Source: Pyropia yezoensis
Taxonomy: Eukaryota; Rhodophyta; Bangiophyceae; Bangiales; Bangiaceae
Reading direction: 5' to 3'
DNA: 64,000 bases
Assembly: GCA_009829735.1 (NCBI GenBank)
Contig: CM020618.1
Location: 24,165,346-24,229,345 of the forward strand
Positions 14,275 to 48,154 of this stretch are shown one piece after another (position 1 is the stretch's first letter; the number at the start of each line of letters is the position of its first letter). The notes under the pieces were generated by a model. That model saw nothing but the letters and a program-made list of their open reading frames with translations. It was not told the origin of the DNA and searched no databases. A program made the translations under genes and the position numbers.

Positions 14275-14637
14275 TGTAGCAATATGGTTGGCCGTATTGT
14301 AACCCTAATATTAGGGGGGCTACTTCTAACCCTTAACTTTCAATTTGATAGTTCGTACTGGTCACGGTATCTATAAGTTACGTATGACCAGAGGGACTTG
14401 CATCTTGGGGTGGAGGGTAGTTAGTAGTGTCTCCGAGGGTTTATAACGTGGGGGCCGGCGGCGAATCCACCGCCGGCCAAGGTAGAACAACAAACCCCTC
14501 CCATTTGGGCTCCCATCTTGGTCCCGTGGCTTGCGCTCCAAGGACAGCAACCTTGGCCTCCCGGTGACGTTGGTGCCGATCCCCCTTGGTGAGTGTTCCC
14601 TGAGAGTGGACGTGCGACGGATCCCTATTGTGCTACA
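14275..14637 (+). repeat. Element A 5' LTR
   Basis: This is 363 bp, TGTAGC to GCTACA. It contains a perfect palindrome CCCTAATATTAGGG at 14303-14316, a TATA-like TATAAC at 14442-14447, and a GC hairpin just downstream (GGCCGGCGG at 14453-14461 pairing with CCGCCGGCC at 14470-14478). That order suggests U3, core promoter, then a structured start of R. It differs from the 3' LTR at 13 positions and resembles the LTR of element D at most of them. Confidence 0.93.
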
Positions 14638-14638
14638 T

Positions 14639-14655
14639 TGGTGGAGCAGCAGGGG
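14639..14655 (+). promoter_or_regulatory. Primer-binding site of element A
   Basis: TGGTGGAGCAGCAGGGG starts one base after the LTR. The same 17 bases follow the LTRs of the unrelated elements C and E, and of B, which marks it as the tRNA primer site. The primer would end CCCCTGCTGCTCCACCA; I cannot name the tRNA. Confidence 0.85.
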
Positions 14656-14862
14656 ACGGGTTTCCGTCACCCTTGTGGTGACGCCGTCTTCGGCCCTGGC
14701 ACACGGATAGGGATCCGGTCCTTTTCTTGTACTCGTGGTGTTGCGACCTGATCGATTGTGTTGAGTTTTTACCTTTGACTGTGATCTACTGTTACTCTCC
14801 CCAATCTACCCCCTCGCTCTCTTATTCGTGGTGATTGTTACGTCGGTTGACTGATTGTGACT

Positions 14863-17046
14863 ATGTCTACCCAAGAGACGGGGAACGTTCAAGATGACGG
14901 ATCGGCGTCGACGCCGACTCCGGAGGTGACTACGGGAGCCGGGATCGGGAACCCGATCGACAACGTTGAGACGCCAATGCTTTCCGGTGCCGGATCGACG
15001 TTTGGCACGGCTCGGACGGCAGGAGGCGGGGGCCCGCCTCAACTGTCGTCGACCGACCTCACTCCGCCGCCTCCTTCACCAGGGGATTCCCTGATGGCAT
15101 CAATGGCCCGCATCGAGGCCCGGTTTTCCGGACTCGACGCTCGCCAGGAGCGGACGGAGGACGCGATGGCAGTGTTGATGTCAACACGCCACACGACGGG
15201 ACCCCGTCGTGTTCCTCCCACACCAGTACGGTTCGAACCGGCCGGACTACTTTCGGAGTCCACCAGGGTCAACCCCGGTGTTGCTACTCCTGGACAACCC
15301 CCGGACACAATGGGGTATGGATCCGACTCGTCGGCAGAGTTGGAACGGAGCCACACGGAGCGATACGCTCGGAGCACCCGAAGCGGACTCCGCGGACACG
15401 ACCCGGCGGATACTTACGCCGGTGGAGAGTCGGTTATTGGCGGAGGGGGTACCCTCTCACAGTATCCCCACGACGAAGGAGGCCAGGCAACTCGGGTTCC
15501 CGAAGTGCCGACGCCTGAAGTACCATCTTCAGTGGTGGAAGCTATGACCGCGCAGGTAACTGCGAGCCTACTGAAGCGGATGGAGTCCGATGAGTTTGCT
15601 CATCAACTGGCTAAGCGACTGGATATCCAGGACGCTGACACGGAGATCGTCAACGAAGTCTTCAGGTCGGTACTGACTCCCGAACGTTATCGTTTGGAAG
15701 ACCGATCTACCACCGTATCGGAATCGATGCGTAATACGTCGCACCGAGCGATCCGCTCTATGCAGACCCTTATGAAGGGAGTCCCTATGTTCGGGGGCCC
15801 CAACGGACGTCCGTTGGCAGTCATCGGCTTCTTGACTAGCTTCAAGGCAGCCGCGGACAAGGCCCTCGTTAACGAGGGGCTGGCCCTGGAGATCCCCCCG
15901 TTCTTTGTTGATGAACGGGTGCGAGGCATCCTTCGCCAGGCATCCCCAATGCCGGGAATGAGGGTCGCGGCCACCCCCATGGATTACCGTGGGATCCTCA
16001 AGGAGCTGCTGAGCAGTTACCTCAGTGAGGACAAGTGCGAGGACCACTACCGGGCCCTGCGCACTGCCACCGCCCAGAGCTGGGAGGATGAGGAGATGTT
16101 CGGACGACGGATTCAAGAGCTCGACTACGAGCTGGGGAAGCTCCTCGGAGAAGGGGAGCTACGGGCCATCCTGTTCGCAGGAGTACCCAACTACGTGCGG
16201 ATATCCGCTCGGGGAGCCAATACGGCCCGGACGAACTTCAGTCGACTGATGCATATGTGCAAGTCCCTAGGGGACGCCTACCGGGTTCTACACCCGGAGT
16301 GCGCCTTGGCCCCGAAGCCCAAGGGTGAGGGAGGCAAGCCCAGTCTTACCCCGGTACCGAGGCAAGAGAAGGTGGAACGTAAGGCCGCACCAGTACTGGT
16401 GGCGACCGAACATACCCCTACGGGCGAGGATGAACCTCTAGTTGACCAACAGGGCCACCTGTTGCTACCGGCGACGCCGGTGATTGATGAGCACGGTACG
16501 GTAGCGTACATCGCCCCGGCTGGGACCCAGTTCCAGGTCAACGAGGGAGCGGGACGGCGCGTCCCGTATGTGCGGACGACGGGGTATGCCCCGGTTACGG
16601 GTAACCCCCACCAGCCCCTGCCTACATGGGCAGTACGTACGGAGGCACCTCCGCAGATTGCGGGCCGACCCAACCGGTTGGGGGAGTCCATGTTCCGGTT
16701 GACCCAAGGACCCCAGGCCTACCAGGGAGCAGGCACTCGGGCGCCCGAGGGAGGCAACCGCAGCTACGGGGCTACCCCGATGCGAACTCAAGGAGGGACC
16801 GGCACGTCCGGATGTATGTTGTGTGGGGATCCCCAGCACTGGGTGTCTTCCTGCCCACTCATCCCCGAGGAGTCTCGGCGGGCAGCGGCGCACCGCAAGG
16901 CATCCACCGGGGGGTATCCCGCCAGAGCACCCGGACCCGCACCGGATAGGCAGCCAGCCCCAGGTGGAGTACTGGCCGTCGAGGAGGCACCTCCGCAGCC
17001 GGAGGTCCCGGCGGACAGCACCCTACCAAGGGCGGGAAACGAGTAA
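14863..17046 (+). CDS. gag: Gag polyprotein of element A
   Basis: The ATG at 14863 gives 727 residues ending at the TAA at 17044-17046. A Ser/Thr/Pro-rich N-terminus is followed by a helical stretch (MARIEARFSGLDARQERTED) and a capsid-like region from about residue 225 to 475. The C-terminus carries one zinc knuckle, C-MLC-GDPQ-H-WVSS-C, of type CX2CX4HX4C, for RNA binding. Gag forms the particle that packages element RNA. The ORF is intact. Element B carries a close copy broken by one nonsense codon. Pol lies in the -1 frame and begins nine bases after this stop. Confidence 0.93.
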   Translation: MSTQETGNVQDDGSASTPTPEVTTGAGIGNPIDNVETPMLSGAGSTFGTARTAGGGGPPQLSSTDLTPPPPSPGDSLMASMARIEARFSGLDARQERTEDAMAVLMSTRHTTGPRRVPPTPVRFEPAGLLSESTRVNPGVATPGQPPDTMGYGSDSSAELERSHTERYARSTRSGLRGHDPADTYAGGESVIGGGGTLSQYPHDEGGQATRVPEVPTPEVPSSVVEAMTAQVTASLLKRMESDEFAHQLAKRLDIQDADTEIVNEVFRSVLTPERYRLEDRSTTVSESMRNTSHRAIRSMQTLMKGVPMFGGPNGRPLAVIGFLTSFKAAADKALVNEGLALEIPPFFVDERVRGILRQASPMPGMRVAATPMDYRGILKELLSSYLSEDKCEDHYRALRTATAQSWEDEEMFGRRIQELDYELGKLLGEGELRAILFAGVPNYVRISARGANTARTNFSRLMHMCKSLGDAYRVLHPECALAPKPKGEGGKPSLTPVPRQEKVERKAAPVLVATEHTPTGEDEPLVDQQGHLLLPATPVIDEHGTVAYIAPAGTQFQVNEGAGRRVPYVRTTGYAPVTGNPHQPLPTWAVRTEAPPQIAGRPNRLGESMFRLTQGPQAYQGAGTRAPEGGNRSYGATPMRTQGGTGTSGCMLCGDPQHWVSSCPLIPEESRRAAAHRKASTGGYPARAPGPAPDRQPAPGGVLAVEEAPPQPEVPADSTLPRAGNE

Positions 17047-17054
17047 GAGGAAGG

Positions 17055-20000
17055 ATGACCGGGGGGCGCTGGGGTAACCCAAGCAAGCCACCCCGGAGTA
17101 CCGCGGGGAAAGCCCCACGGAGAGCGCGGTTGAGCCGACGCCGCATCAACCCCCGGGTACACCTTCCGGCCCCGACGACACGGCGTCAGGGGATTGATGA
17201 CCAACCACCAAGGTTGGGAGGAGAGGACGGGAAGCCCCGTCACATGGAACCAGACAAGGGTCCTGTTCAGGATGCCCGAGCTACACCGGATATCGGTGTA
17301 GGCCACGTGCTGTTTACCTTGGAGAACTTCAAGGTATCAGCCACACTGGGGGTTGACCCCCAGTCGACACGATCGTACTACCCTGTACTGGATACAGGGG
17401 CTGGACCCAACCTTATCCGGAAGGATACCCTCCCGGACAAGTGGCTTCCGCGAGTCAGAGTGACTCGGGGACCCACCATCAAGGACGCGAATGGTCGCCT
17501 CATTCGTACGACCGCAGCGATGTCGCTGCGGGTGACCATCGGGGAACTCACCACGGAAGTCGACTTCCTGGTGTGTGAGACCCTATCGGTGCCCTGCATA
17601 CTGGGGTGCACCTTCATCAACGTTCACGTTGATGCAATCCGGCCAGGCCGGAGGACCGTTGAGCTTCAAGAAGCCGACGGGACGAAGCGAGGACACACGG
17701 CTATCGTCAGGGACCTGACGCTACAAGGGAGCCACGTTAACGTGGCTGAGGTGTACGCAAGTGTCGAGCCGAAGACACTTCGGTTGGCCAAGCGAACTCG
17801 CTTTGAGCCGTTGTCGGAGACAGTCCTCCCGGTTAACTGTGACCTCGCAGGCATCTGCAGAGTCAAGTCCAACTTGCGGACGTACAAGCGCCATGGGTTG
17901 ACCATGGCCAACGGTCTCATAGACCTCCCATCAGGAGGGTCGTCCCTCCTAGTGATGGCGAACTATCGCCGTAAGGCAGTCACCCTCCCGAAGGGAACTA
18001 TCCTCGGGATTGCCGAGCTCTACGAAGGAGATATCCTTACCCCTGACAAGGAAGGTCAAGTGGACCCACTTGAGGTGCTGGCGGTCGCCGAGACCACCGA
18101 GCGACAGCAACCCGATGACGGGAAGCCTAACCCATCGGCGGCGCCGGCGGACCTGCCGCCAAAGGACCAAGAGGCCTTGAAGGCACTGGCCGAGGCTGAC
18201 CTCGACCACCTTCACCCTTCGGTAGCCGAAGGGGTACGACGGATGCTAAGAAAGCATGACGTTATGTGGACAGGCGGGGCCTTGGGGACCATTGGGGCAA
18301 CCCAACATCGTATAGACCTGGTACCAGGCGCACGACCCGCCCGCTCACAACCGCACCGAGCGGGACCTATGCAACGAGAGATCGTTGATGGAGAAGTGAA
18401 GAGGATGAGTGAAGCTAAGGTGATCCGACCTTCGATGTCGGAATGGGGTGCCCCAGTCGTTATTGTGCCGAAGAAGGATCAAACTCCTCGGTTTTGCATC
18501 GATTATCGACGCCTTAACTTGGTTACCAAGAAGGACTCATACCCTTTACCAAGGATGGATGAATGCATCGACTCCCTGGGGGAAGCTACGGTGTTTACCA
18601 CCATCGACTGCAATGCCGGATACTGGCAGATCCCGGTGGCGGACGAGGATATCCCCAAGACGGCATTCGTCTGTCACAGTGGAGTGTACGAGTTCCTAAG
18701 GATGCCCTTCGGATTGTCCAATGCCCCCGCTACATTCCAGCGGGCTATCGACATTATACTGTCGGGGGTGAAGTGGCGTAACTGCCTAGTGTACCTCGAT
18801 GACGTTATCGTCTTCTCGCGTAACATGGATGACCATGTGCAACATGTGGACGAGGTACTCACCCTCTTGCGGAACGCCGGGGTAACCCTGCGTCTGAAGA
18901 AGTGCGCCTTCTTCCAACAGACGGTCGAGTATCTGGGCCACCAGATAACCCCTGGTAAACTAGGGGTACTCGAAGCCAATACCCGGGCACTCCGGGATGC
19001 CCGGTTCCCTAACACCCAGACACAGCTCAAGAGCTTCCTGGGAATGTGCCATGTATACCGACGGTTCGTCAAGGACTTCGCTCGGATAGCTAAACCGTTA
19101 ACGGTTCTTACGAGCAGTACCCTGCCCAAGGTACTCCAACCCCCTTCGCCTAGCGAAGAGGAGGCATTCGAGTCGCTGAAGCGAGCCCTACTATCCCCAC
19201 CCGTCCTTGCGTTACCGCACCGACGGGGTACCTTCGTCATCGATGTTGATGCGTGCGACACCCAAGTGGGATGCACCCTGCTACAGGGGGAGACGTTGAT
19301 CGGTACCGATAACGTTATCCCGGACCTACGTCCGGTAGGATACTTCAGCCGGACACTCAACCCGGCTGAGCGTAACTATAGTGCCACCGAGCGTGAATGC
19401 CTCGGAGTTATATGGGCAGTGCAACTGCTCCGTCCATACCTGGAGGGCTCCAGGTTCATCGTGAGGTCCGACCACGAACCCCTACGATGGCTCCTCAACC
19501 TTGGTGACAAGGATTCCGATAGCCATGGGAGGCTAGCCCGATGGAGGCTAAAAATGGCCGAGCACGACTACCGTACCGTGTATAAGGCTGGGTCAACCCA
19601 CCATCTCGGAGACGCATTGTCTCGACTCGACACCCCGAGCGGGGATACCCGCCCGGTGGACGAGGACATCCCGGTGGTACCGGTCTGCATGGTGGGTAAC
19701 GCTACCCAAGGTATGGTTGACCATACCATGGCACACCGAGCATGCCCACTAACCCTCGCGGACTTCCGCGAGGCACAAGCCAATGACGACGACTGTAGAC
19801 GTCATCGCGCTAACCTCCTGGCCGGCACGGCCGGCATCTTCTCCAAGAACGAAGACGGACTCATATACCGGCGGGCACCCGCCGATGGACGACATCAAGT
19901 CGTGGTTCCCGTGTCCTTACGGCAAGCCGTCATGGAACGAGAACACGAGAACCCCACAGCCGGACACCCGGGGGGTTCACGTATGTTCGCAGCAATGCGA

Positions 20001-21221
20001 AGGTTCTTCTACTGGCCAGCAATGGCCGTCGACGTGGTCGACCACGTAAGGGGATGCCACCCCTGTGCACGTAACCGCATGAGTCTGCATAGGCAGGCGT
20101 CTGCCATGAAGCTTTTCCCACCTGATGGGCCCAACGAGCAGGTCGCTATCGACATACTCGGGCCACTTCCGGTAACGGAAGAAGGGAACAGGTACATCCT
20201 GGTCATGTCTGACCGGTTCACTAAGCTGTCACGAGCGGCAGCCATCCCGAATGATACGGCATACACCATCATGAACGCAGTGGTTGACCACTGGATCAGT
20301 GCATACGGAGTCATGAAGCAACTCCTCTCCGACAACGGAGCAAACCTTACGTCAGCATTCTGCACTAAGGTCCTGGGCATGCTCGGTATCGAACCACGTC
20401 GGGCATCCGACTACCACCCGCAAACCAACGGGCAGGTGGAGCGGTTCAACCGCACCATCGTAAAGATGCTACAGTGCTACGTGGCCGAGCACACGAACAC
20501 TTGGGACAGGCTTCTGTCCGTACTCACCCTGGCATACAATGCCAGGCCACATCGGAGCACAAACATCGCTCCGCTGGAGTGGGTCATGCCACTAGGCGTC
20601 GGTAACCTGACGCTGCCACCAGGCAGGTGCACTCGGTATGATACACCGAAAGGCCGACCGGCCGAACGTATCGACCTAGCTTGGTTGGCCAAGCTATCGT
20701 GGATGATTCCTAAGCTCAAGGGTGCCCTTGACAGAACACAACTTCGATATAAGAAGAACTTCGACGCCCGACTACGGGTGCGCAACGCTACCTTGGTAAC
20801 AGGTGACTGGGTCTATATCAGACACCAGAAGTTCCGGGGGAACAAGCTCATGCTACCGGTCAAGGGACCGTACCAGATTCTCCACAGAGATGACCACTCT
20901 GTTATCTTACACTCCGATACGGAGATCCAACGCATCAGTGTGAATGATGTCACACCTGCTCCGAAGCCGGAACAGCCTCTGCCGGTACCGGCTGGGTTGC
21001 TACATGAAGCTCTTACAACCCACCGGTCAGATGACCCGGTGGGACCGGATGGGATTCCATACCAAGTAGAGAGCGTGGTCGGACACACCGACCCGGACCT
21101 ACGAGGACCCTGGTACGTCAAGGTTATGTGGGTCGGATACGACTCACCCACCTGGGAACAGGCGGCAAATATACCCCGCCAACTCCTCATGCCTTACATG
21201 AGGCGACGACGCCTACTGTAA
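17055..21221 (+). CDS. pol: Pol polyprotein of element A: protease, RT, RNase H, integrase, chromodomain
   Basis: The ORF has 1388 residues without interruption. The protease motif is DTGAGPNLI at residue 113. Reverse transcriptase has the catalytic YLDD at residue 580. RNase H starts near DVDACDTQVG (about residue 729) and ends near LGDALSR. Integrase has an HHCC zinc domain (EHENPTAGHPG to GCHPCARNR), then the DDE triad at D1033 (AIDILG), D1093 (LSDNG) and E1129 (NGQVER), a DD35E spacing. The C-terminus (YQVESVVGHTDP to VMWVGYDSPTWEQ) reads as a chromodomain, which in chromoviruses steers integration to marked chromatin. Pol follows gag by eight bases in the -1 frame. Expression could be by -1 frameshifting or re-initiation; the sequence does not decide. 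Confidence 0.95.
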   Translation: MTGGRWGNPSKPPRSTAGKAPRRARLSRRRINPRVHLPAPTTRRQGIDDQPPRLGGEDGKPRHMEPDKGPVQDARATPDIGVGHVLFTLENFKVSATLGVDPQSTRSYYPVLDTGAGPNLIRKDTLPDKWLPRVRVTRGPTIKDANGRLIRTTAAMSLRVTIGELTTEVDFLVCETLSVPCILGCTFINVHVDAIRPGRRTVELQEADGTKRGHTAIVRDLTLQGSHVNVAEVYASVEPKTLRLAKRTRFEPLSETVLPVNCDLAGICRVKSNLRTYKRHGLTMANGLIDLPSGGSSLLVMANYRRKAVTLPKGTILGIAELYEGDILTPDKEGQVDPLEVLAVAETTERQQPDDGKPNPSAAPADLPPKDQEALKALAEADLDHLHPSVAEGVRRMLRKHDVMWTGGALGTIGATQHRIDLVPGARPARSQPHRAGPMQREIVDGEVKRMSEAKVIRPSMSEWGAPVVIVPKKDQTPRFCIDYRRLNLVTKKDSYPLPRMDECIDSLGEATVFTTIDCNAGYWQIPVADEDIPKTAFVCHSGVYEFLRMPFGLSNAPATFQRAIDIILSGVKWRNCLVYLDDVIVFSRNMDDHVQHVDEVLTLLRNAGVTLRLKKCAFFQQTVEYLGHQITPGKLGVLEANTRALRDARFPNTQTQLKSFLGMCHVYRRFVKDFARIAKPLTVLTSSTLPKVLQPPSPSEEEAFESLKRALLSPPVLALPHRRGTFVIDVDACDTQVGCTLLQGETLIGTDNVIPDLRPVGYFSRTLNPAERNYSATERECLGVIWAVQLLRPYLEGSRFIVRSDHEPLRWLLNLGDKDSDSHGRLARWRLKMAEHDYRTVYKAGSTHHLGDALSRLDTPSGDTRPVDEDIPVVPVCMVGNATQGMVDHTMAHRACPLTLADFREAQANDDDCRRHRANLLAGTAGIFSKNEDGLIYRRAPADGRHQVVVPVSLRQAVMEREHENPTAGHPGGSRMFAAMRRFFYWPAMAVDVVDHVRGCHPCARNRMSLHRQASAMKLFPPDGPNEQVAIDILGPLPVTEEGNRYILVMSDRFTKLSRAAAIPNDTAYTIMNAVVDHWISAYGVMKQLLSDNGANLTSAFCTKVLGMLGIEPRRASDYHPQTNGQVERFNRTIVKMLQCYVAEHTNTWDRLLSVLTLAYNARPHRSTNIAPLEWVMPLGVGNLTLPPGRCTRYDTPKGRPAERIDLAWLAKLSWMIPKLKGALDRTQLRYKKNFDARLRVRNATLVTGDWVYIRHQKFRGNKLMLPVKGPYQILHRDDHSVILHSDTEIQRISVNDVTPAPKPEQPLPVPAGLLHEALTTHRSDDPVGPDGIPYQVESVVGHTDPDLRGPWYVKVMWVGYDSPTWEQAANIPRQLLMPYMRRRRLL

Positions 21222-21699
21222 CCACCCAACCGACACCGACTTCGGCTGTTGGGGGGTGAGGCTTATACCTACTAAGTAGGGTGTGACATGGTTACGGCAG
21301 ACTTAGGTTTCTAAGTCAAATCAGACTTAGGTTTCTAAGTCGAACCAAGGTTAGGCAACTAAGTAGAGTCAAGCTTAGGTAACTAAGTAAAACCTGAACC
21401 TTAATAAGTTAACTTAAAGGTAAAGGCTAACTTCGATAATATCGAAGTAAATAGGGGGCTTACACGGGAGGATGACCTCCCCAAGCCAAGACACAAAGTG
21501 AGGGAGGATGACCTCCCCAAACAGGAACCAACCGGAAGAAGTTGGGCGGGAGGCAAGGCACCACTGAGCCAGAAGGGGTACTCCCCAGGGCAGCAAACAG
21601 AGGCAAGCAATGCCCCCAAAGGGGATGAGTTTATACTCACTACTACCCGGCTACCATAAGGGTCACCGGGGCCCTCTCCCTCACAACCAATAGCACTCC
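21222..21699. promoter_or_regulatory. Convergent intergenic interval of element A with hairpins and 24-bp array
   Basis: This separates the pol stop from the antisense ORF stop. It is strikingly AT-rich compared with the rest. It holds a CCTACT-A-AGTAGG inverted repeat near 21268-21280, four tandem 24-bp units at 21300-21395, a perfect hairpin ACTTCGAT-AAT-ATCGAAGT near 21430-21448, and two GGGAGGATGACCTCCC hairpins near 21466 and 21501. A bidirectional 3'-end or transcription-stop region is the simplest reading. Confidence 0.55.
21300..21395. repeat. Four tandem 24-bp hairpin units
   Basis: Units start at 21300, 21324, 21348 and 21372. The first two each contain the inverted repeat GACTTAG-GTTT-CTAAGTC; the other two keep the CTTAGG...CTAAGT core with changes. 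Element D has a matching four-unit array and B a two-unit remnant. Confidence 0.85.
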
Positions 21700-24069
21700 T
21701 CAGTGGGTAGACCCACTGCCCGAGGGAGGCCACTCACGCGTAAGCGCGTATACCTCCGTGCTCCACCGGTCGGCAATCTCACGACGGGCAATCACCCGAG
21801 TTACCTCGGTGCATAGCTGGACGAGGGTGCTGCGGCCAGCCTCCACGTCCTCCAGAGCTTTCTGGAGGCGGTCCAGCACGCCACCGAAGCAACGCGCTGA
21901 CCCAACTAGCGCAGCACCTGGGGGGATATCCCCCCAGCTAACAGAGAGACCCTCCCGCATTGCGCGGGCAACAAGGGCGTCAACGCCCTCATACCAGAGA
22001 CGGGGACCCCGGTCTTGTATTACAGGGGCGGGAGCGGACACTGGCGCAGCCAGAGGAGCCAAAGGAGCCGACACGGCTACCACCGGAGCCGGTGGCACCT
22101 GATACGAGGCTCGGTAGGACCCTACCGAAGGGGCTCCACCGTAACCCCGGCGGGGCTCCGCCCGACGACGGGACACCTCACGCTCCCCACCAGCGGAGCC
22201 CCACTCTCGGGGACGACGGCCAACCGCCGCCGGTATCGGGTTACCGAACCACGGGGCAAGGACCTGAAGAGGGTCATGGATAACCATGGGAATACCCAGG
22301 TCAGGAACGGCCTCGGTGGACGCCCACCCATGGCAACTAGGCTCACCCGGCTGAGTACGCCGGATACGCAACGAGTGACGAGGCAAGGGGGTAGCTTCAG
22401 CCTGCGGGTCCCGGTACGGGGGAAGGGCCAACACCCCAGCCCAGTTCACGGCATCGTGAACAGCCAGCAGGGCCTCGAACTCCCGGGCCAACCCGGTCTT
22501 GGCAGCTATCAGGTCCACGCCCAACTGCGCGATGTGCCGACGGACACCCGTCGGAAGATGAAACAGGCGCCCCTGCCGGCGGACGGACAGCAAGAAGGAG
22601 GAAGCCTGCCCGAGGGTAACCTCAAGGGTGAAGGTACCCTGCAACGGGTGGACCGGCCGGGAGGCCAACACACTCCCGAAGTATCGGAGACAGGGACCGG
22701 TGTCAAACCGGAAAGCAGGGGCGGGTTCCCACTCCTCCTGCCACAGAGGCGGGCGCACGGCAGTGTAGACCGGCGCGCGACCGTTACCGGTCTGCAACGC
22801 ACACGTTATATCGGTGCGGAACGCATCCGCCATGACACCATGGTTGCGTCGCCAGCTCGACGCTGACTTCAACCCCGCCATAGGCGGGTACGGAGCCGTC
22901 AACGTCAGGTACGGGGATACCCCCGGGAAGTACTCGAACCCGGGATACCGGCCGGTATCACCCACCGTCTTCCCAAATGCAACTGGCTCCGCCGCCGCCG
23001 CAATCCCCCGAGCACTAGCCGGGTAGTCAACCTCCCGCGGCAACGCGGGGGCAATCAAGTCGCATATTCCGAAGGTGGAGTCGAGGTAGACCTCACCCCG
23101 CCCAATCCGGGAGCGCCAGAGCTGCGCATGCCGGTCATCCGGCTGGCTCAGGATCCAATGGTGTTCCACTCGCACCGCGTTCGGCTGGTTGACCAGCCGC
23201 ACCAACTCCCGCTCCCAACTCGGGTCCACCTTGACGCGCCGGGAGGACTCTCCACGGGGATGGGGCAGGTGGAAGTCCACCCGCATCCGCCCATCGGACT
23301 CCATTGACTCTTGCACAGTCAGGCCTCGAACCCGAGCCACCAAGTCGAACATCGACATGGCGGGTTGACCCGCCGCCACGGCGACGCCGCCACCCAACGA
23401 GGCAACCCGGGCAGGTCCAGGAAGAGTCGGGGGTGCCGGGGGATGCCCCACCGGCACATGGGCCGTTGCCGGCGGTGCCCGAGGCCGAGGAGGAAGAAGA
23501 AGGACGGGCGCCCGCCCGGAGTAACTACCGGAGTCCACAGCCATCGGTGTAAACCCACCTTGACCACCAGACGCCCGCGGCACCGCGGGCAGAGCATCGC
23601 CGCCACCCGGACCCGACGTGGGTACCACGGGGGCAGCACGGGTAGACCCGCTACCCGCCGCAGCGGACACACCAACCGGGCGGGCACCCGCGCCGTCTTG
23701 ACCCGCCAGACTGGACGGGGTGCCAACACCACCATCCGCCACGCCGGCGACACCGTCTTGAGGTAGAGCCACGCCGGTACCGGCCACAGAAGCCATCCGG
23801 GCCGCCGGAGGAGAAGCGGTAGAAGCCACCGCTGCACGCGGTTGTCCGCCACCCGACGGAGCCGTCGTGCCGCTACACACAGACGACAACCCGCCCGGCG
23901 CGCCGTCCGGGGCCACACGAACGGTCACCCGGTCGTCCTCGTCCTCCGACGAGCTCGCTAGGAAGCACTCGGCGGCGGTGGCGGAGACGGGAACGTCGTC
24001 CACCATCACCTCTTCCCCCTCTTCAGGCAGGAGGTCGTCCTCGCCCCCGGGTACCTGGGGATCCGACAT
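21700..24069 (-). CDS. Antisense ORF protein of element A (unknown family, 789 aa)
   Basis: A minus-strand ORF of 789 residues runs from the ATG at 24069 to the stop at 21700, convergent with pol. The first 250 or so residues look disordered: an acidic start, a cluster SSSEDEDD at about 39-46, then Ala/Gly/Pro-rich sequence. A compact region follows with PSWERELVRLVNQP, HHWILSQPDDRHAQLW, DYPASARGIAAAAEPVAFG and FLLSVRRQGRLFHL. The C-terminus is helical and charged. I recognise no enzyme motif, membrane segment or signal peptide. Elements B and D carry full-length copies. Antisense ORFs between pol and the 3' LTR are known from some plant Ty3/gypsy clades such as Tat/Retand and Grande, mostly of unknown function. 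A role in regulating, packaging or localising the element is only conjecture. Confidence 0.85.
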   Translation of the reverse strand: MSDPQVPGGEDDLLPEEGEEVMVDDVPVSATAAECFLASSSEDEDDRVTVRVAPDGAPGGLSSVCSGTTAPSGGGQPRAAVASTASPPAARMASVAGTGVALPQDGVAGVADGGVGTPSSLAGQDGAGARPVGVSAAAGSGSTRAAPVVPTSGPGGGDALPAVPRASGGQGGFTPMAVDSGSYSGRAPVLLLPPRPRAPPATAHVPVGHPPAPPTLPGPARVASLGGGVAVAAGQPAMSMFDLVARVRGLTVQESMESDGRMRVDFHLPHPRGESSRRVKVDPSWERELVRLVNQPNAVRVEHHWILSQPDDRHAQLWRSRIGRGEVYLDSTFGICDLIAPALPREVDYPASARGIAAAAEPVAFGKTVGDTGRYPGFEYFPGVSPYLTLTAPYPPMAGLKSASSWRRNHGVMADAFRTDITCALQTGNGRAPVYTAVRPPLWQEEWEPAPAFRFDTGPCLRYFGSVLASRPVHPLQGTFTLEVTLGQASSFLLSVRRQGRLFHLPTGVRRHIAQLGVDLIAAKTGLAREFEALLAVHDAVNWAGVLALPPYRDPQAEATPLPRHSLRIRRTQPGEPSCHGWASTEAVPDLGIPMVIHDPLQVLAPWFGNPIPAAVGRRPREWGSAGGEREVSRRRAEPRRGYGGAPSVGSYRASYQVPPAPVVAVSAPLAPLAAPVSAPAPVIQDRGPRLWYEGVDALVARAMREGLSVSWGDIPPGAALVGSARCFGGVLDRLQKALEDVEAGRSTLVQLCTEVTRVIARREIADRWSTEVYALTREWPPSGSGSTH

Positions 24070-24441
24070 GGTGCAACCGGGGTGGCAGGGGCGCCCCTTG
24101 CAGAAAAGCCGAGGCCGGCTCGACCCGGTACGAGGAACGCTCGCGCGGACGAGCCAGGGAAGCGCGGGCGCCCGCGCTTATGACCACAAACGGCCACGAG
24201 AAGCGCCGCAGGCGCGCGGGTCGACCCGCGCCCCACGAGGCTACGAACGGGCTCCACCCAGGCACCTGGGCGGGCCGGGGCCACACCCCCGTACGGGGCA
24301 ACCAAGAGGGGTTCACCCCGAAACCGCCCCCGCGAAAAGCGGGAGCGGCCGCCCCCATTCACTCGGTAACACGAGAGGGGCTCCCCTACCACCAGACACC
24401 TGGTGGCGGATCCGCTTGCACCACCCCTCGGAAAGGGGGGT

Positions 24442-24486
24442 CGTGAACAGAAACCCGCATCGGGAATTTAACGGTCCGGAAAACGG
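24442..24486 (-). promoter_or_regulatory. Conserved block upstream of the antisense ORF (element A)
   Basis: This 45-bp block, with GACCGTTAAATTCCCGAT on the minus strand, is almost identical in A, B and D. It lies 366-373 bp upstream of each antisense-ORF ATG, so it could be part of a promoter for that ORF. It is also within the stretch before the 3' LTR and might serve replication instead. Confidence 0.35.
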
Positions 24487-24649
24487 ATCGTGTGTGTACC
24501 ACACAAAGGGGGGCACCCCCCTCAGACAACCTCGAAAAGGGGTGTCTGTCGCGACAGGGCGCAAAGCCCCACCCGACTGGTAAACGGTCACGCGACCCAC
24601 TTACATTCGGAACCCCAAATGCAACTCGACCCGAGGACGGGCCGAATCT

Positions 24650-24660
24650 AAGGGGGGGAT
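24650..24660 (+). promoter_or_regulatory. Polypurine tract of element A
   Basis: AAGGGGGGGAT immediately precedes the 3' LTR. The same purine run borders the equivalent LTRs of B and D. It would prime plus-strand DNA synthesis. Confidence 0.85.
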
Positions 24661-24661
24661 A

Positions 24662-25024
24662 TGTAGCAATATGGTTGTCCGTATTGTGACCCTAATATTA
24701 GGGGGGCTACTTCTAACCCTTAACTTTCAATTTGGGAGTCCGTACTGGTCACGGTATCTATAAGTTACGTATGACCAGAGGGACTTGCATCTTGGGGTGG
24801 AGGGTAGTTAGTAGTGCCTCCGAGGGTTTATAACGAGGGGGCCGGCGGCGAATCCACCGCCGGCCAAGGTAGAACAACAAACCCCTCCCATTTGGGCTCT
24901 CATCTTGGTCCCGTGGCTTGCGCTCCAAGGACAGCAACCTTGGCCTCCCGGTGACGTTGGTGCCGATTTCCCCTGGCGGGTGTTCCCTGAGAGTGGACGT
25001 GCGACGGATCCCTATTGTGCTACA
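24662..25024 (+). repeat. Element A 3' LTR
   Basis: This is 363 bp, collinear with the 5' LTR without gaps but with 13 substitutions. Most of the variant bases match the LTRs of element B rather than D. Confidence 0.93.
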
Positions 25025-29625: not shown

Positions 29626-31581
29626 ATGGCTAGTTCGGACCCCCCGTCGTCCGGGGAGTACACGGGTGACGCACGTACTTCAGTGCCTTTGAATACTGGT
29701 GAGACACACAGGTGGGTTTACCTGGGGTCGCAGAGGGACTAGAGGTCCCCCAAGCCAGCAGGACTGGAAGTGCGGGCGGGCAACAGGCCACCCCGACTCA
29801 GTCGGGAGTTCGCTCGGGTGACACTTCTGATGTGGGTGGGCCGAAGTCTGGCCACCGTGTGGTACACTCAACGGGAACTTCCCAAGGGGTGAGGCCTGTC
29901 CCCGCGGGTTCCACTCGGGTTGGAGCCAACTTTGGCTTGGAGCCGTCGCCAACTAGGCTTTCGGAGGACGGCGGACCTCCGTTGGTCGGCGATGGGCTCG
30001 CGCCCATGCCCCCGGTTGAGACCCCTGAGGAACGTGGTTACCCCTCAGGTGGACTCCCGGAGGCGGACCGAGACTCAACTGGAGTCGACAATCCACTCCT
30101 CGCGGAAACTGTCCGTCGGGAGGCGACCAATGTGTTGCGGCAGACTTTGCCGGACCTGGTGGTCACGATGACGAATACTATTCTGAATCAGATTGTGGCG
30201 AGTTTGCCAGATGGCCTTAATGTCCAGACCGGATCGGGGCTTTCGAGCCCGCAGGCGCAGGGGGAATCCCTCCTTACGCCTATCTCGGGTCGCCCCGAAC
30301 AGGGGGCGACACCTGTGACTCCCAACATGGGAGCCACACCATACTCGGTGGGGCGTACGCCATTCATGGGGGATTTCCCCCCGGAAACGTCGGCGGCTAC
30401 ACCAAGCGTGCCGCGCCAGACTATGGGCACTGAGGGTGAACTTGCCCCAGTGCCACAGCGGCTGTTCCCTCAACGTGAGGTGCCGCCCAAGATCCAGGTA
30501 GCCAACCCGGTCTACCAGAGGATCTTTGACTGTGAGACCTACGCCCTCCACAACAAGTCGGTGGCGTATGATCCTGACCAGGCCCAAGCCATGGGCCGTG
30601 CCAAGAAGAATGCACTTCACTCTTTTTTTTTTGGGCACAAAGCGGAGTGGGATGGAACTCCCCCCCCTCCGCGTCTTTGAGTTTCTACGTCGTTTCACAA
30701 AAGCCTGTGACGACAATGCCATAAGTGAAAGCATGGCTTTCTATATGCTACAGGAATTCACGAAGGGCGACCTGCGGACAGAACTTATGTCCGTCATGCC
30801 CAGCTCCTCAAGGGGAGGCGCTGGTGAGGTGACGTCCTATTTGGAGCTCGTCAACTGGTTGTTGAGAGCCATGGTTGATGATGCGGCGTTGGCTTCTCAA
30901 GTTGAGGAGTTTACGCAAGCCCATCAGGAAGAGGCGGAGGACGAGTTGTCCTCTGCCGAGCGAGTTCGTAAGCTCAACAATCTTTGTGGGTTTCTTCATC
31001 CACAAGCTGTGGTGAAGAGTCGGTTTGTGGAGGGACTCCATTGGTCAGTCCGGATGAAGACCCGGGGGCATAACACTGCCCGGGCGACCCTGGCCGAGTT
31101 GGCTAGGTTCGCTTACCGCAGAGGTGAGGCCTACCGCAAGTTGCGGGAGGAAGAACGCCAGGAGCTTCAGGCCGAGTTGGCCAAGGAACGTGAGGAGGCG
31201 CGCCAGGCCAGAGAGCTGAGGGAGGCGTGCCGAATCCGCAAGGAGAGGGTGGTAGCTGCCGTGGGAACTTCCCAGGGTACCTCTTCGTCTTCCCCAGTCG
31301 GGAAGACCCCTCCGGGAACAGACAATCGGTGTTGGAACTGCAACTCCGATGGACACTGGGCATATGATTGCCCCAAGTTGAGTAAACGCATCCAACAACT
31401 TGTTAGGAATGCGAGTAAGAAGTCGGCTACGAACGAAGTACGTTCACGCCGCGAGGGTGGGTCTCGACCGGTGGTGGCGGTCGCCACACCCTCGGCGGAG
31501 GGGGCGGACACGTCGTCCTCGGACTCGTCGTCTTCCCCTTCGTCCTCAGATTCGGACGCCAAGTCGGCGGGAAACGAATGA
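29626..31581 (+). pseudogene. gag: Gag of element C, frameshifted
   Basis: The likely ATG is at 29626 in GCCAACATG, the same context as the gag start of element E. The frame shifts near 29690-29745, then runs to about 30660. A second shift occurs near a T10 run (30623-30632) and a C8 run (30660-30667). The third frame continues (VFEFLRRFTKACDDNAISES) to the TGA at 31579-31581. This part has a charged coiled segment (REEERQELQAELAKEREEAR) and one zinc knuckle, CWNCNSDGHWAYDC, of type CX2CX4HX4C, then a Ser/Asp-rich tail. The capsid region resembles that of E. Homopolymers make sequencing error a possible cause for the second shift. Confidence 0.8.
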
Positions 31582-33579
31582 CCGTTGGAGCTGGTCGTCC
31601 GAAGCTCACAACGGCAGCCTCGGCCAAGTGGGTCAAGAGGACGAACCAACCGTGCCGGATACTGCGGCGACCTAAGAGAGTCCGCCCACCTCGGTTAGGA
31701 CTCCCCAAGAACGTAAACCCACGTCGGGTCATCGCGGTGCTGACGGGTGAGAGCTTCCAGGTGGCTGGACGGGTGCAACTTGCCCCCGGCCGCGCCTGTT
31801 GTGCCCGTATCGTACTCGATCCCGGGTCAGGAGCCTCCTTGATACGCAAGTCGCTATTACCAAAGGAGATGAAGCTCCAACGCTGGAAGTCTAAAGCTGA
31901 CCATCTGATCGATATCAATGGTGGGGTACTTCCCATCGTTGGTGCCGTGACCCTACCAACTAGGTTGGGGACCCATGAGGTCGACGTGACCTATGGAGTA
32001 GTTGAGAATATATCGGTACCCTTGCTTCTGGGTACCCCTTATGTTGTAACTCAAGTGCCTTTGATTTGTGGCCCTGAGTACTGGGTCAAGTCGATGAATG
32101 GGGAAACCATCCCCCTCCTTGGTAAGGGAAAGTCTGTGGCTCCTGTGACAGTCTCACAGTCGAAGCCTGTTTGCTCTGTGAGGGAAGGGTTTACTGCTAC
32201 CCTGCGTCTAGCTCGTAAAGTCACGTTGCCCCCCAACTCGGTGGCGCACGTTGACGTTGTAACTGATTATACGGGGAACGGGTTGGTGCACCCTCACCCC
32301 CGTCTTGCTCGCAAGCACCACGTGCATGTTGCCTTTGGCACGATGGACTCCAAAGCCGGATTCCCGTGGAGGATCCAGGTTATGAACCTGAGCTCGTCGC
32401 CCAAGTACTTCAAGTCGGGAGCCAAGTTCGGCTATATCGACCAACATGAGGGACCGGTAGTAGCGGTCACCCTCAACGCGGGCGCGAGTAGCAACCCGAA
32501 GTCCGGAAAGGAGAAGCATCAAGCCAAGTCGGCCGCCTCTCCTCGGCCCCATGTGAACATGGAGGGTGTTCCACCCAGGTTGAGGGTTCAAGTTGAACGC
32601 CTCTTGGACCAATACCACAGGTTGTGGGATGGTCAATTGGGACTCATGAGAGCCACCCAACACCGGATCGAGTTGAGGCCCGGTGCACCCCCTATACGCC
32701 AACAACCGTATAGGGGAGGACCCCGTTCAAGGGCCCTTTTTAAGGAGCAAGTTGCTCGCATGGAGGCCCTCGATGTGATCGAGGCCAGTAACGCCGAGTG
32801 GGCGAGTCCGGTGGTTGTCGTCCCCAAAGTTGATGGGACCCCACGGTTCTGTATCGACTACCGTAAGCTCAACGAGAGCACGGTGAAGGACAGATATCCC
32901 CTACCTAGGATGGACGACTGTCTGGACTTTCTGGGGGAGGCAAACGTGTTCTCTACCCTGGACTGTAACGCGGGGTACTGGCAAATTCCCATTGCCCCGG
33001 AGGACAGGCATAAAACTACCTTTACCTGTCACTGTGGTACCTACCAGTGCAAGCGCCTACCGTTTGGACTGTGCAACGCGCCGGCATATTTCCAGCGCGC
33101 TATGGACATGATTCTGGCCGGAGTACGGTGGCAGATCTGTCTCGTGTACCTAGACGATATCATTGTGTTCTCCCGAAGTCCGGAGGAGCACATTGGCCAT
33201 CTTGGCCAGGTGTTCAAGCTACTTGCTGACGCCGGTGTATCACTGAAGGCGAGTAAGTGCCACCTCTTCACTCAAGAGGTGGAGTACTTGGGACATGTTG
33301 TCCGTCCGGGGCGTCTCAGTGTCATCGAGAAAAACTTGAGGGCCATCCGTAAGGCTCAGTACCCCCGGACACAGACCCAGATGAGGAGCTTCCTCGGGAT
33401 GTGTAACGTGTACCGACGTTTCACCTAGGGCTTCGCCAAGGTGGCGAAGCCATTGAATGAGCTAGTTAGCTCAACGCTACCGAAGAACCTGCCTCCCCCA
33501 AGTCGGGTGGAGCAGGAATCCTTTGAGACTCTTCGGGACCTTCTGCTGAAGCCCCCCATCTTGGCTACTCCCAGGTTGG
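31578..33579 (+). pseudogene. pol: Pol of element C, first part: protease and reverse transcriptase
   Basis: The ATG at 31578 overlaps the gag stop in an ATGA, in the -1 frame. Protease shows LDPGSGASLIRK. Reverse transcriptase is well kept, with FCIDYRKLNEST, the catalytic YLDDIIVFSRS, and YLGHVVRPGRL. A TAG at 33426-33428 replaces the lysine codon found in element A (FVKDFA against FT-stop-GFA). The frame then continues to LLKPPILATPRL, where element B is inserted after base 33579. Without B and one GTTGG copy, the reading frame joins exactly to GGHYILDVDASYDQLG at 42024. Confidence 0.88.
33575..33579. repeat. Target-site duplication of element B, left copy
   Basis: GTTGG, matched by 42020-42024 on the other side of B. 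Removing B and one copy restores the codons of element C. Confidence 0.92.
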
Positions 33580-34530: not shown

Positions 34531-36900
34531 ATGTCGGACCCCCAGGTACCCGGGGGCGAGGACGACGTGCTACTTGGGGAGGAGGAAGAGGTGATGGTGG
34601 ACGACGCTCCCGTCTCTGCCACAGCCGCCGAGTGCTTCTTAGCGAGCTCGTCGGAGGACGAGGACGACCGGGTGACCGTTCGTGTGGCCCCGGAAGGAGC
34701 GCCGGGCGGATTGTCGTCCGTGTGCAGCGGCACGACGGCTCCGTCGGGTGGCGGGCAACCGCGCGCAGCGATGGCCTCTACCGCTACTCCTCCGGCGGTT
34801 CGGATGGCTTCTGTCACCGGTGCCGGCGCGGCTCTACCTCAAGACGGCGTCGCCGGCGTGTCGGATGGTCGTGGCCGCACCCCGGCCGAGCCGGCGGGTC
34901 AAGACGGCGCGGGTGCCCGCCCGGTTGGTGTGTCCCCGGCAGCGGGTAACGTGTCTACTGCTGCTGCCCCCGTGGGGCCCGCGTTGGGCCCGGGTGGCGG
35001 CGGTACTATACCCGCGGTGCCGCGGACCCCTGGTGGTCAAGAAGTATCTACCCCGATGGCCGTGGACTCCGGGAGTTACTCCGGGCGGGCGCCCGCCCTT
35101 CTTCTTCCTCCTTGGCCCCGTGCTCGGCCGGGGCCGGCCCGTCTGCCGGTGGGGCTTCCCCCGGCGCCCCCTATTCTTCCTGGTCCTGCCCGGGTTGCCC
35201 CTTTGGGTGGCGGTGTCGCCTTGGCGGTGGGTCAACCCGCTATGTCGATGTCCGACTTGGTGGCTCGGGTTCGAGGCCTGACTGTGCAGGAGTCGATGGA
35301 GTCCGCTAAGCGGATGCGGGTGGACTTCCACCAGCCGCGTCTTCCTGGAGAGACCTCCCGGCGCGTCAAGGTGGACCCGAGTTGGGAGCGGGAGTTGGTG
35401 CGGCTGGTCAACCAGCCGAGCGCGGTCCGGGTGGAGCATCATTGGATCCTGAGCCAGCCGGATGACCGGCATGCGCAGCTCTGGCGCTCCCGGATTGGGC
35501 GGGGTGAGGTCTACCTCGACTCCACCTTCGGGATATGCGACTTGATTGCCCCCGCGTTGCCGCGGGAGGTTGACTACCCGGCTAGTGCTCGGGGGATTGC
35601 GGCGGCGGCGGAGCCAGTTGCATTTGGGAAGACGGTGGGTGATACCGGCCGGTATCCCGGGTTCGAGTACTTCCCGGGGGTATCCCCGTACCTGACGTTG
35701 ACGGCTCCGTACCCGCCTATGGCGGGGTTGAAGTCAGCGTCGAGCTGGCGACGCAACCATGGTGTCATGGCGGATGCGTTCCGCACCGATATAACGTGTG
35801 CGTTGCAGACCGGTAACGGTCGCGCGCCGGTCTACACTGCCGTGCGCCCGCCTCTGTGGCAGGAGGAGTGGGAACCCGCCCTTGCTTTCCGGTTTGACAC
35901 CGGCTCCTGTCTCCGATACTTCTGGAGTGTGTTGGCCTCCCGGCCGGTCCACCCGTTGCAGGGTACCTTCACCCTTGAGGTTACCCTTGGGCAGGCTTCC
36001 TCCTTCTTGCTGTCCGTCCGCCGGCAGGGGCGCCTGTTCCATCTTCCGACGGGTGTCCGTCGGCACATCGCGCAGTTGGGCGTGGACATGATAGCCGCCA
36101 AGACCGGGTTGGCCTGGGAGTTCGAGGACCTGCTGGCTGTTCACGATGCCGTGAACTGGGCTGGGGTGTTGGCCCTTCCCCCGTACCGGGACCCGCAGGC
36201 TGGGGCTTCCCCCTTGCCTCGTCACTCGTTGCGTATCCGGCGTACTCAGCCGGGTGAGCCCAATCGCCATGGGTGGGCGTCCACCGAGGCTGTTGCTGAC
36301 CTGGGTATTCCCATGGTTATCCATGACCCTCTTCAGGTCCTCGCCCCGTGGTTCGGTAACCCGACACCGGTGGCGGTTGGCCGTCGTCCCCGAGAGTGGG
36401 GCTCTGCTGGTGGGGAGCGTGAGGTGTCCCGTCGTCGGGCGGAGCCCCGCCGGGTTTACGGTGGAGCCCCTTCAGTGGGGTCCTACCGGGCCTCGTATCA
36501 GGTACCACCGGCTCCGGTGGTAGCCGTGTCGGCTCCTGTGGCTCCTCTGGCAACGCCCGTGTCACCTCCCGCCCTTGTCATGCCTGACGGGGGTCCCCGT
36601 CTCTGGTATGAGGGCGTTGACGCCCTTGTTGCCCGCGCGATGCGGGAGGGTCTCTCTGTTAGCTGGTGGGACATCCCGCCAGGTGCTGCGCTGGTTGGGT
36701 CCGCGCGTTGCTTCGGCGGCAAGCTGGACCGTCTTCAGTCCGCTCTGGCGGACGTGGAGGCCGGCCGCAGCACCCTCGTTCAGCTATGCACCGAGGTAAC
36801 TCGGGTGATTGACCGTCGTGAGATCGCCGACCGGTGGAGCATGGAGGTGTACGCGCTTACGCGTGAGTGGCCTCCCTCGGGCAGTGGGTCTACCCACTGA
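34531..36900 (+). CDS. Antisense ORF protein of element B (789 aa, intact)
   Basis: The ATG at 34531 follows TTTCACC and opens a 789-residue frame ending TGA at 36898-36900, exactly the length in element A. The N-terminal 250 residues differ from A at many places but keep the acidic SSSEDEDD patch and the PMAVDSGSYSGRAP motif. The core from KVDPSWERELVRLVNQP to about VYTAVRPPLWQEEWEP is essentially identical. It is uninterrupted although B's gag has a stop and its pol a large deletion. It runs opposite to the rest of B. No known domain is recognised. Either B is young or this ORF was under longer selection than gag and pol. Confidence 0.85.
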   Translation: MSDPQVPGGEDDVLLGEEEEVMVDDAPVSATAAECFLASSSEDEDDRVTVRVAPEGAPGGLSSVCSGTTAPSGGGQPRAAMASTATPPAVRMASVTGAGAALPQDGVAGVSDGRGRTPAEPAGQDGAGARPVGVSPAAGNVSTAAAPVGPALGPGGGGTIPAVPRTPGGQEVSTPMAVDSGSYSGRAPALLLPPWPRARPGPARLPVGLPPAPPILPGPARVAPLGGGVALAVGQPAMSMSDLVARVRGLTVQESMESAKRMRVDFHQPRLPGETSRRVKVDPSWERELVRLVNQPSAVRVEHHWILSQPDDRHAQLWRSRIGRGEVYLDSTFGICDLIAPALPREVDYPASARGIAAAAEPVAFGKTVGDTGRYPGFEYFPGVSPYLTLTAPYPPMAGLKSASSWRRNHGVMADAFRTDITCALQTGNGRAPVYTAVRPPLWQEEWEPALAFRFDTGSCLRYFWSVLASRPVHPLQGTFTLEVTLGQASSFLLSVRRQGRLFHLPTGVRRHIAQLGVDMIAAKTGLAWEFEDLLAVHDAVNWAGVLALPPYRDPQAGASPLPRHSLRIRRTQPGEPNRHGWASTEAVADLGIPMVIHDPLQVLAPWFGNPTPVAVGRRPREWGSAGGEREVSRRRAEPRRVYGGAPSVGSYRASYQVPPAPVVAVSAPVAPLATPVSPPALVMPDGGPRLWYEGVDALVARAMREGLSVSWWDIPPGAALVGSARCFGGKLDRLQSALADVEAGRSTLVQLCTEVTRVIDRREIADRWSMEVYALTREWPPSGSGSTH

Positions 36901-46474: not shown

Positions 46475-48154
46475 CTAGGTGTGGAGGGCTTGCATGTCCA
46501 CCAGGGCCCGCGTCTCAGAAGTCGCGACCCCCAACTCACGACGCATACGCGTCGTGAGATTTTCGGCGGACAGGTCCGCTAATGCGGCCTGGGGTTGAGA
46601 AGGAGGGGCACCCGCCAACACGCCAGCCATGTCGTTGGCCAAGCCTGTATAGGCTCGGAATAACGCCGTAGTCAATACTGACTGGGTGGCAAAGGTAAAC
46701 TCCGCCGGGAGGTCCTGCCCAAAGGAGGCCCTCATCCCGAACAAAAGTTGGGGGGACATAGTGCCCCCCACCGCCAGACGAAGTTCGGGGTTCCTCCGAA
46801 AGGGTGGAAACCTAGGGGGGGCAGCCAAACGGTTACCCCCATAACCCGCATCAAGGCCAGCTCGGCCTAGACCGGGAGCTCCCCGGGGGAACGCCCCACC
46901 CCGGACTTTCCAGGCCGAGGTCGCCGCGGATTGCCCCGCAGTGGTTCCCGCGCCAGCGCGGGGAGCTCCTGCTCCCGGCGGCCGGGCTCGGTCACAGGAG
47001 ATCCGGTCGGATCCCCAGAGGGAGGAGCCCCCTCCCGTATGGGGGGGACGTTCCCCGAGGGGGACAACTTCCCCCAACTCGGGGACGAGCTTTGGGCCCT
47101 CCCGGCACATCTGCACCTTGGGGTTGGAGACCCGAGAGGATGCGGTAACACCCTCACCGTAAGGGAGGGTCGGGATGTCAAGCCCCGCCATAAGGAGGGG
47201 CCGCTGATCCCCGGGGGAAAGCTCCTGAGAGACCAAGACGAGTCCTCGGCGGCCGCCTTGATCGCGGAGGCGCCCGTCAGGTAGGAGCGACCTCACCCGC
47301 CGAAGGAGTTGAAGGGCCTCATCAAAGAGACCCGGCTTGGCATACTTCTCCTCTTAAAAGAGAAGGGAAGTGTCCAACGCAGAAAGAGCGTCCAGGAGGG
47401 GCTCGTTCAAGAGCCACAAGTGGCCATGAAATGAAACGGCGCACAAAAAGATGTCCGCCACCTCCACCAACCAGGAAGTGGAGGCCATGGCATTCTCCTG
47501 CCCCCCTAAAGGGGAGCGGACAAGAAGGCTTCCTCGTAGAAGGAAGAACAACGGAAGACGGCAGGCCATTCCCCGTGGGACCTCCAAGGAGGACCTCCAC
47601 GGGGGCACGGCCGGGTAGAGCCCCCCCCTTATCGGGCCGGGGACGTGATGGTATTCCTTCTGCTCCCGATTAATGCGGAATCCAGGAAACTCCCGTAGGC
47701 GCCACTCCGCCAGAGCGCTCCGGGTGTAATACCCGGGGTCGTCCCGGCCGAGAATGGGAATGGGCCCCGTGTAGTACCGGAGGTCAGTGCACGGTCCCTC
47801 TCCTGTAAAGGGGGGGCCCGCCAGTATCTCCTCGACCCCATTAAGAAGGTCTATGTCGAGCAGACCCCTGTAAAAGGGTAGGTCCGATGGCAGTACCTCC
47901 GACACGGTATAAACCGTGCCGTACTGCATGCGCAGATTGCGCCATATGTTAACCATCGGGAGCACACCTACGGCTCGATACCGTAGGTGTGAGATGCTGC
48001 ATGACCGGGGACCCTTGGTCGAGTCGTACCGATCGTCATCGATAGCGATGAGGGGTACGCCCCGGTGGGTGTCCACCCCATCTGGGGTTGACCCACGGTC
48101 ACCCTCCGGTATGTCATCCACCCCCATAGGGGGGTGGTCTTCCGGAGACGACAT
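46475..48154 (-). pseudogene. Antisense ORF of element F, one in-frame stop
   Basis: The minus strand from the ATG at 48154 (MSSPEDHPPMGVDDIPEGDR) reads to a TAA at 47356-47354, then continues in the same frame (EEKYAKPGLFDEALQLLRRV) to 46475. It has 560 codons in all, against 790 in A. It lies downstream of F's pol and converges with it, the same position as in A, B and D. Local similarities to that family run in the same order: YYTGPIPIL for YYPGEPPYLSL, GLYPAVPPW for PVYTPVRPPLW, FLCAVSFHGHLWLL for FLLSVRRQGRLFHL, and GLDIP for DLGIP. Seen by eye these suggest common descent, but the identity is low. Function is unknown. Confidence 0.6.

What the first reader, a model, noticed from the sequence alone, without database searches (positions are those of the whole stretch)
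21700..24069. A retrotransposon family with a long conserved antisense gene between pol and the 3' LTR
Seen directly: elements A, B and D each carry a stop-free ORF of 789, 789 and 815 codons on the strand opposite gag-pol, at the same place, convergent with pol. The protein has a variable acidic and Pro/Ala/Gly-rich N-terminal third and a strongly conserved core. It matches no family I know. Established: antisense ORFs are reported for some plant Ty3/gypsy clades (Tat/Retand, Grande), mostly without known function. Inference: this is a dedicated third gene of a chromodomain-bearing lineage, perhaps for silencing control, trafficking or packaging.
Basis: partly seen in the sequence, partly recalled or inferred. 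Interest (0 to 1): 0.88.

Follow-up and report, generated by a model that had tools for sequence, protein, structure and literature searches.

The report
Antisense third gene in algal retrotransposons
In a farmed red seaweed, a large group of retrotransposons carries an extra protein gene written on the strand opposite to its other genes, and that gene has been inherited together with the elements' copying enzyme for a long time, so the elements probably need it, although what it does is unknown.

Summary
A (789 aa), B (789) and D (815) carry it open, under purifying selection. The host is almost certainly Pyropia yezoensis; relatives exist in P. vietnamensis (31-52% identity). Of 43 examined A-family integrase copies on one contig, 42 have the gene convergent behind pol; 7 more were not examined.

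A second family in the same window (46475-48154, minus strand, one in-frame stop) and at least three others in the genome carry a divergent homologue in the same place and orientation, in 11 of 13 regions fetched. Antisense and RT trees do not conflict; between the most distant types RT is 59-64% and the antisense protein 13-22% identical. I read it as an ancestral third gene that co-descends with pol.

Antisense genes in this position are known from plant Retand, Grande and RIRE2 elements, so the architecture is a known kind. The protein family and the red-algal, chromodomain-like lineage did not appear in my searches. No known domain was found and structure prediction never ran. Function (my bet: a regulator of the element's own expression or silencing) is inference.

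The parts
14275..25024 (+). Element A (type I), LTRs 14275-14637 and 24662-25024, target duplication GTCGG
14863..17046 (+). gag of element A
   Evidence: weak zinc-knuckle match below cut-off
17055..21221 (+). pol of element A: protease-like, RT, RNase H, integrase, chromodomain-like C-terminus
21222..21699 (.). 478-bp spacer between the convergent pol and antisense stop codons
21700..24069 (-). Antisense third gene of A, 789 aa, type I
24070..24661 (-). Leader between the antisense start codon and the 3' LTR; the part 24451-24661 is 95-100% identical between A, B and D; candidate place of an antisense promoter (inference)
34531..36900 (+). Antisense gene of element B (33580-42019, minus), 789 aa, open although B's pol has an internal deletion
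58051..60498 (+). Antisense gene of element D (starts 57101, minus, runs off the window), 815 aa
44827..46167 (+). Integrase with chromodomain-like C-terminus of a second element family (type II)
46475..48154 (-). Antisense gene of the type II element, convergent with 44827-46167; one in-frame stop at 47354-47356
29712..33428 (+). gag and first part of pol of element C, whose pol belongs to the family carrying type V antisense genes; B is inserted in it and it continues from 42012

Best explanation
An ancestral third gene of a clade of Ty3/gypsy elements with chromodomain-like integrases in Bangiales red algae, placed antisense between pol and the 3' LTR. Shown: a gene under selection, almost always present in the A family, with homologues in at least four other families in the same place. 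Supported: common descent with pol. Inferred: it is transcribed as its own minus-strand mRNA from a promoter in the leader inside the 3' LTR, convergent with the genomic RNA; and its soluble product (acidic disordered N-terminal third, conserved core, C-terminal segment) regulates the element's own expression or silencing, so that an element can make it without making genomic RNA. My odds: selected protein-coding gene 0.97; co-descent with pol 0.9; own minus-strand transcript 0.85; regulator rather than packaging or other role 0.4.
For: Selection and in-frame indels. P. vietnamensis relatives with the same kind of acidic start. 65 of 78 scored 560-aa matches without a stop, 150 of 150 over 111 aa, both lists capped and biased to good copies. 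42 of 43 examined integrase copies have it convergent behind pol. HMM of types II-V finds 6 of 10 type I proteins at E 5e-8 to 2.5e-5; best of 1000 shuffles 0.99. Convergent pol in 11 of 13 regions. Trees do not conflict. Leader strongly conserved. By analogy: Grande gene23 has its own antisense promoter and a nuclear product (PMC7264820 and PMC11963269, passages).
Against: No transcript seen. No DNA-binding or other domain. Neutral to acidic (pI 5.7-6.6), and a scan for four close basic residues found none in A, D, type II or type V and some only in III and IV. Leader conservation could reflect its closeness to the LTR. dN/dS is 0.39-0.85 in 7 of 11 pairs from types II-V, so the constraint is not uniformly strong. 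Types I and II alone cannot be linked by pairwise or profile comparison. The chromodomain is below Pfam's cut-off.
Confidence: 0.4

Rival explanations
1. Packaging, assembly or RNA-export accessory: the protein works with Gag or with the unspliced genomic RNA rather than on transcription or silencing.
For: Long soluble conserved core and high conservation beside gag-pol fit a structural partner. Some LTR elements encode an export protein (Cer1 CERV, PMC10309623; title and start of abstract in the listing only).
Against: No similarity to the elements' gags (8 sequences, best E 0.054). Coded on a separate strand from gag-pol, so its dose is uncoupled from Gag.
Confidence: 0.25
2. Self-limitation or immunity factor: the product damps further copying of the element, as a copy-number control.
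For: Convergent orientation would let the accessory gene and genomic RNA compete; the gene is kept at very high copy number.
Against: No direct evidence. Selfish loss would be expected to be favoured, yet 42 of 43 examined copies keep the gene in place.
Confidence: 0.12
3. The antisense RNA is what matters (dsRNA or transcriptional interference) and the open frame is incidental.
For: Convergent genes with a 79-478 bp spacer (six measured) could make overlapping transcripts; the review raises this possibility (PMC7264820, passage).
Against: dN/dS below 1, in-frame indels and absence of stops; protein-level homology where the types share only about 20% identity.
Confidence: 0.05
4. Env-like gene for passage between cells.
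For: Position between pol and the 3' LTR.
Against: Antisense, and no transmembrane-like stretch: highest 19-residue hydropathy mean 1.53 in A and 1.23-1.40 in five others of types I-V. Signal peptides were not predicted with a dedicated tool.
Confidence: 0.03

Closest known systems
Plant Retand-lineage elements with antisense TRP28 ORFs (PMC11963269; abstract and passages)
   Same: Ty3/gypsy; antisense gene between pol and 3' LTR, found lineage-wide there too (97% of clusters, by the abstract)
   Different: Retand is a non-chromovirus lineage; its antisense protein carries Transposase_28 (PF04195), not found here
Maize Grande gene23 and rice RIRE2 antisense ORFs (PMC7264820; passages)
   Same: Same position and orientation; gene23 is transcribed from its own antisense promoter
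   Different: No sequence comparison with gene23 could be made here; host is a red alga and the integrase chromodomain-like
Chromoviruses
   Same: RT, RNase H, integrase order with a chromodomain-like C-terminus
   Different: Carries an antisense third gene; placement in the chromovirus RT clade was not tested
Ogre (plant mobile domain) and Athila extra ORFs (PMC6317226; passages)
   Same: Extra gene outside gag-pol in Ty3/gypsy elements
   Different: No PMD or Athila match here, though those searches rang in none of their 14 control genomes

Membership tests
LTR elements with an antisense ORF between pol and the 3' LTR | ORF antisense to gag-pol, between pol and 3' LTR | tested here: met
   Element A in full; convergent behind pol in 11 of 13 regions of other families, where the LTRs themselves were not mapped
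Retand | TRP28 (PF04195) in the antisense protein | tested here: not met
   hmmscan at E up to 10 of 13 members of A5 and of 10 further proteins; genome search 0 candidates
Retand | Non-chromovirus RT lineage | not tested
   No reference RTs were aligned
Chromovirus | Chromodomain at the integrase C-terminus | tested here: inconclusive
   Pfam Chromo E 0.0003-0.065 in 6 of 8 pol pieces, all under the cut-off of 25.1 bits
Chromovirus | RT within the chromovirus clade | not tested
   Tree holds only this genome's types
Ogre-type extra ORF | Plant mobile domain (PF10536) | tested here: not met
   No match; the control genomes did not ring either
Env-like gene | Transmembrane segment | tested here: not met
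   Hydropathy only, six proteins

The most novel reading that the evidence does not exclude
A lineage-wide, vertically inherited antisense third gene has kept its place and orientation while its protein diverged to about 20% identity. If red algae and flowering plants reached antisense genes behind pol independently, with unrelated proteins, then the convergent position itself is what selection keeps: a built-in switch in which making the accessory protein and making genomic RNA compete.
Probability: 0.25. Interest if true: 0.82.

Novelty: new variant of a known kind. Interest (0 to 1): 0.6.

Why it matters
A broad survey of plant elements found extra ORFs so heterogeneous within lineages that it asked whether they have any function (PMC6317226, passage); Retand's TRP28 is the main counter-example, and its role is unknown too (PMC11963269). 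Here one antisense protein family is traced through at least five element families, and its types I and II into a second species, in step with pol and under measurable selection. That makes 'does it matter to the element' answerable, and gives a defined core (types I-V, A6) to fold and assay. My searches of the paper library listed no antisense gene in a red-algal or chromodomain-bearing element; most subscription journals are not in that library.

Tried and rejected
Chance ORF in GC-rich DNA: rejected. Env-like: rejected on hydropathy. Derived from gag: no similarity in 8 gag sequences. TRP28, PMD, Athila: no match, with the weakness that the PMD and Athila controls rang nowhere and TRP28's only in E. 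coli below its cut-off. A visual likeness of the core stretch around FHLP to the TRP28 and PMD patterns is recalled from memory, comes from no call, and is not claimed. PDB by profile: A1 gave short-chain dehydrogenases (best E 0.0027) over its low-complexity start, A6 gave leptin at E 0.53; read as noise. Below-cut-off Pfam rows dropped: DUF6214 (E 0.014-0.1), a phage decoration domain (0.23), RING-type fingers in the first 27 residues of one type III frame (0.009). PHROGs: nothing for 4 proteins. Viral and prokaryote contig collections: no relative. Type I HMM on the window's six frames: only A, B and D. Type I against type II alone: 12 pairs, z 0.2 to 4.2, shuffles reaching the score 0 to 112 of 300; 53 of 200 column permutations scored as high; hhalign gave nothing. 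The link appeared only with the wider profile, where P0010, P0011 and P0012 gave no row and P0008 only a weak one (E 2.1).

Full report
WHAT WAS CHECKED. The ORF at 21700-24069 (-) exists, 789 codons, open; B and D carry it at 34531-36900 and 58051-60498. Element A spans 14275-25024 with 363-bp LTRs 96.4% identical and a GTCGG duplication; B spans 33580-42019 with GTTGG on both sides; D begins at 57101 and runs off the window. The longest stop-free run in 2000 composition-keeping shuffles was 552 codons. dN/dS is about 0.39-0.41 over the ORF and 0.19-0.41 in the core; 6 of 6 A/D indels keep frame; no stop arose where 4.9 (A/D) and 3.0 (A/B) were expected. B's ORF is open although about 2.3 kb inside its pol is missing relative to A.

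HOST. Contigs C1-C3 are 43.59, 34.33 and 29.39 Mb in a 107.5-Mb assembly. The P. yezoensis paper gives chromosomes of 43.6, 34.3 and 29.4 Mb and 65% GC (PMC7423979, passages). The name is my identification from these lengths.

A SECOND SPECIES. One search found 7 relatives of the A protein: 5 from Pyropia vietnamensis (31-52% identity over 37-78% of the query) and 2 from unnamed assemblies (89-93%). One search, with one of the former as query, listed 12 including itself: 10 from P. vietnamensis and the same 2. Several begin with a similar acidic start (P0011, P0015-P0017). These records have no genomic context, so their antisense position was not seen. P0017 is a gene model in which the start of this protein runs into a gag-like sequence, as after a nested insertion.

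ABUNDANCE AND INTACTNESS. With the 560-aa core 78 places were scored of 2577 first-look candidates, all over the full query, 94-96% identical besides A itself; 65 of 78 have no stop. A 111-residue piece: 150 of 150 scored places without a stop, of 1059 candidates. Integrase control: 120 of 121 without a stop, of 4397. All three lists are capped and favour good copies. As a less biased test I took all 50 integrase rows on contig C1 (A and D of the window among them). Thirty have a listed antisense copy on the opposite strand within 4 kb downstream, none another arrangement; 1000 shifted controls averaged 0.3, maximum 4. Of the other 20, 13 were read: 12 hold the gene in place, one (L054) does not. 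So 42 of 43 examined; 7 not examined. Of those 12 copies, 5 (L047, L049, L050, L052, L056) are open over the roughly 667 residues in view and 7 have stops or frameshifts. Single copies decay; the family keeps the frame.

NOT ONE FAMILY BUT AT LEAST FIVE. A second antisense ORF in the window, 46475-48154, lies behind the integrase of another element (44827-46167); it has an acidic start and one in-frame stop. Its first 270 residues have two P. vietnamensis relatives at 54-56% and 142 scored matches in the genome (1509 candidates) at 28-100% identity, 115 of 142 without a stop (tallied). Around such matches I fetched 13 regions of 10 kb. Eleven have a convergent Ty3/gypsy pol, or its end, behind the antisense gene (L032-L036, L038-L043); L031 is interrupted by a type I element and L037 showed no pol. 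Stop-to-stop spacers are 79-478 bp in six measured. Type V appears in L042 and in L043 continuing into L044, where the pol is of the same family as element C of the window. The HMM of types II-V finds 6 of 10 type I proteins at E 5e-8 to 2.5e-5, colinear over the core; a seventh is weak and three give no row; the best of 1000 shuffles has E 0.99.

CO-DESCENT. RT identity: I against the rest 59-64%, II-III 79%, IV-V 71-75%, V against II and III 73-74%. Antisense identity: I against the rest 13-22%, II-III 33-34%, IV-V 34-35%. RT tree: (I,((II,III)56,(IV,V)93)). Antisense tree: I apart, (II,III)96, the order of IV and V unresolved (50). Both are unrooted and each well-supported grouping is strong in only one of them; they do not conflict. 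The simplest reading is that the gene was in the common ancestor and has evolved much faster than RT. dN/dS in other pairs: 0.16 (V), 0.20 and 0.21 (distant III pairs), 0.27 (II), and 0.39-0.85 in the remaining 7 of 11 pairs, several of which include stop-to-stop extensions beyond the likely start.

THE PROTEIN. Acidic start, Pro/Ala/Gly-rich N-terminal third, a core with few residues kept across types I-V (W, D, P, R, W, E, GS, G in A6), a Pro/Ala-rich linker and a C-terminal segment. pI 5.7-6.6, no transmembrane-like stretch. Lysine 0.5-0.8% against 4.0% in pol and 2.1% in gag; the plus strand is A-rich over gag, pol and the antisense gene, which leaves the antisense coding strand A-poor. 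No accepted match in Pfam, PHROGs or PDB. Structure prediction never ran.

KNOWN OR NEW. Antisense ORFs in this place are described for plant Retand, Grande and RIRE2, and in Retand one domain is nearly lineage-wide (PMC11963269, PMC7264820; abstracts and passages). So the kind is known. What I did not find in the searches listed is this protein family, such a gene in a red alga, or in a chromodomain-bearing lineage. I read no paper whole; PMC6317226, PMC12477816 and PMC7423979 were seen as passages.

MECHANISM. What is shown ends at a selected gene, antisense, convergent, very probably co-inherited. Transcription from the leader, a regulatory role, and competition between accessory protein and genomic RNA are inferred from position and from the analogy with Grande gene23.

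Noticed in passing
window 29712-33579 and 42020 to about 43700: Element C: its pol is interrupted by the insertion of element B and continues beyond it; its 3' part is then replaced by a fragment of another element.
   Followed up: partly
window 55632-57113: A gag-like ORF of a further element ends where element D begins (57101), as if D had inserted in it; no Pfam match.
   Followed up: partly
window 4587-9032: Long ORF with a 12-bp tandem repeat (63 copies listed from 5302 on; Pro-Thr type disordered repeat) and a weak heparinase-like C-terminus.
   Followed up: no
window 9600-13565 (-): Ordinary host gene: insulinase-type M16 peptidase.
   Followed up: yes
window 14275-25024: Plus strand is A-rich over gag, pol and the antisense gene alike, making the antisense protein very poor in lysine.
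   Followed up: partly
window 24451-24661: The leader next to the 3' LTR is 95-100% identical between A, B and D while the antisense N-terminal coding part beside it drops to 61-69% between A and D: promoter, other cis signal, or recombination near the LTR.
   Followed up: no
L037 2505-4499: Type III antisense gene without a recognisable pol behind it: decayed or rearranged copy, or a non-autonomous element.
   Followed up: no
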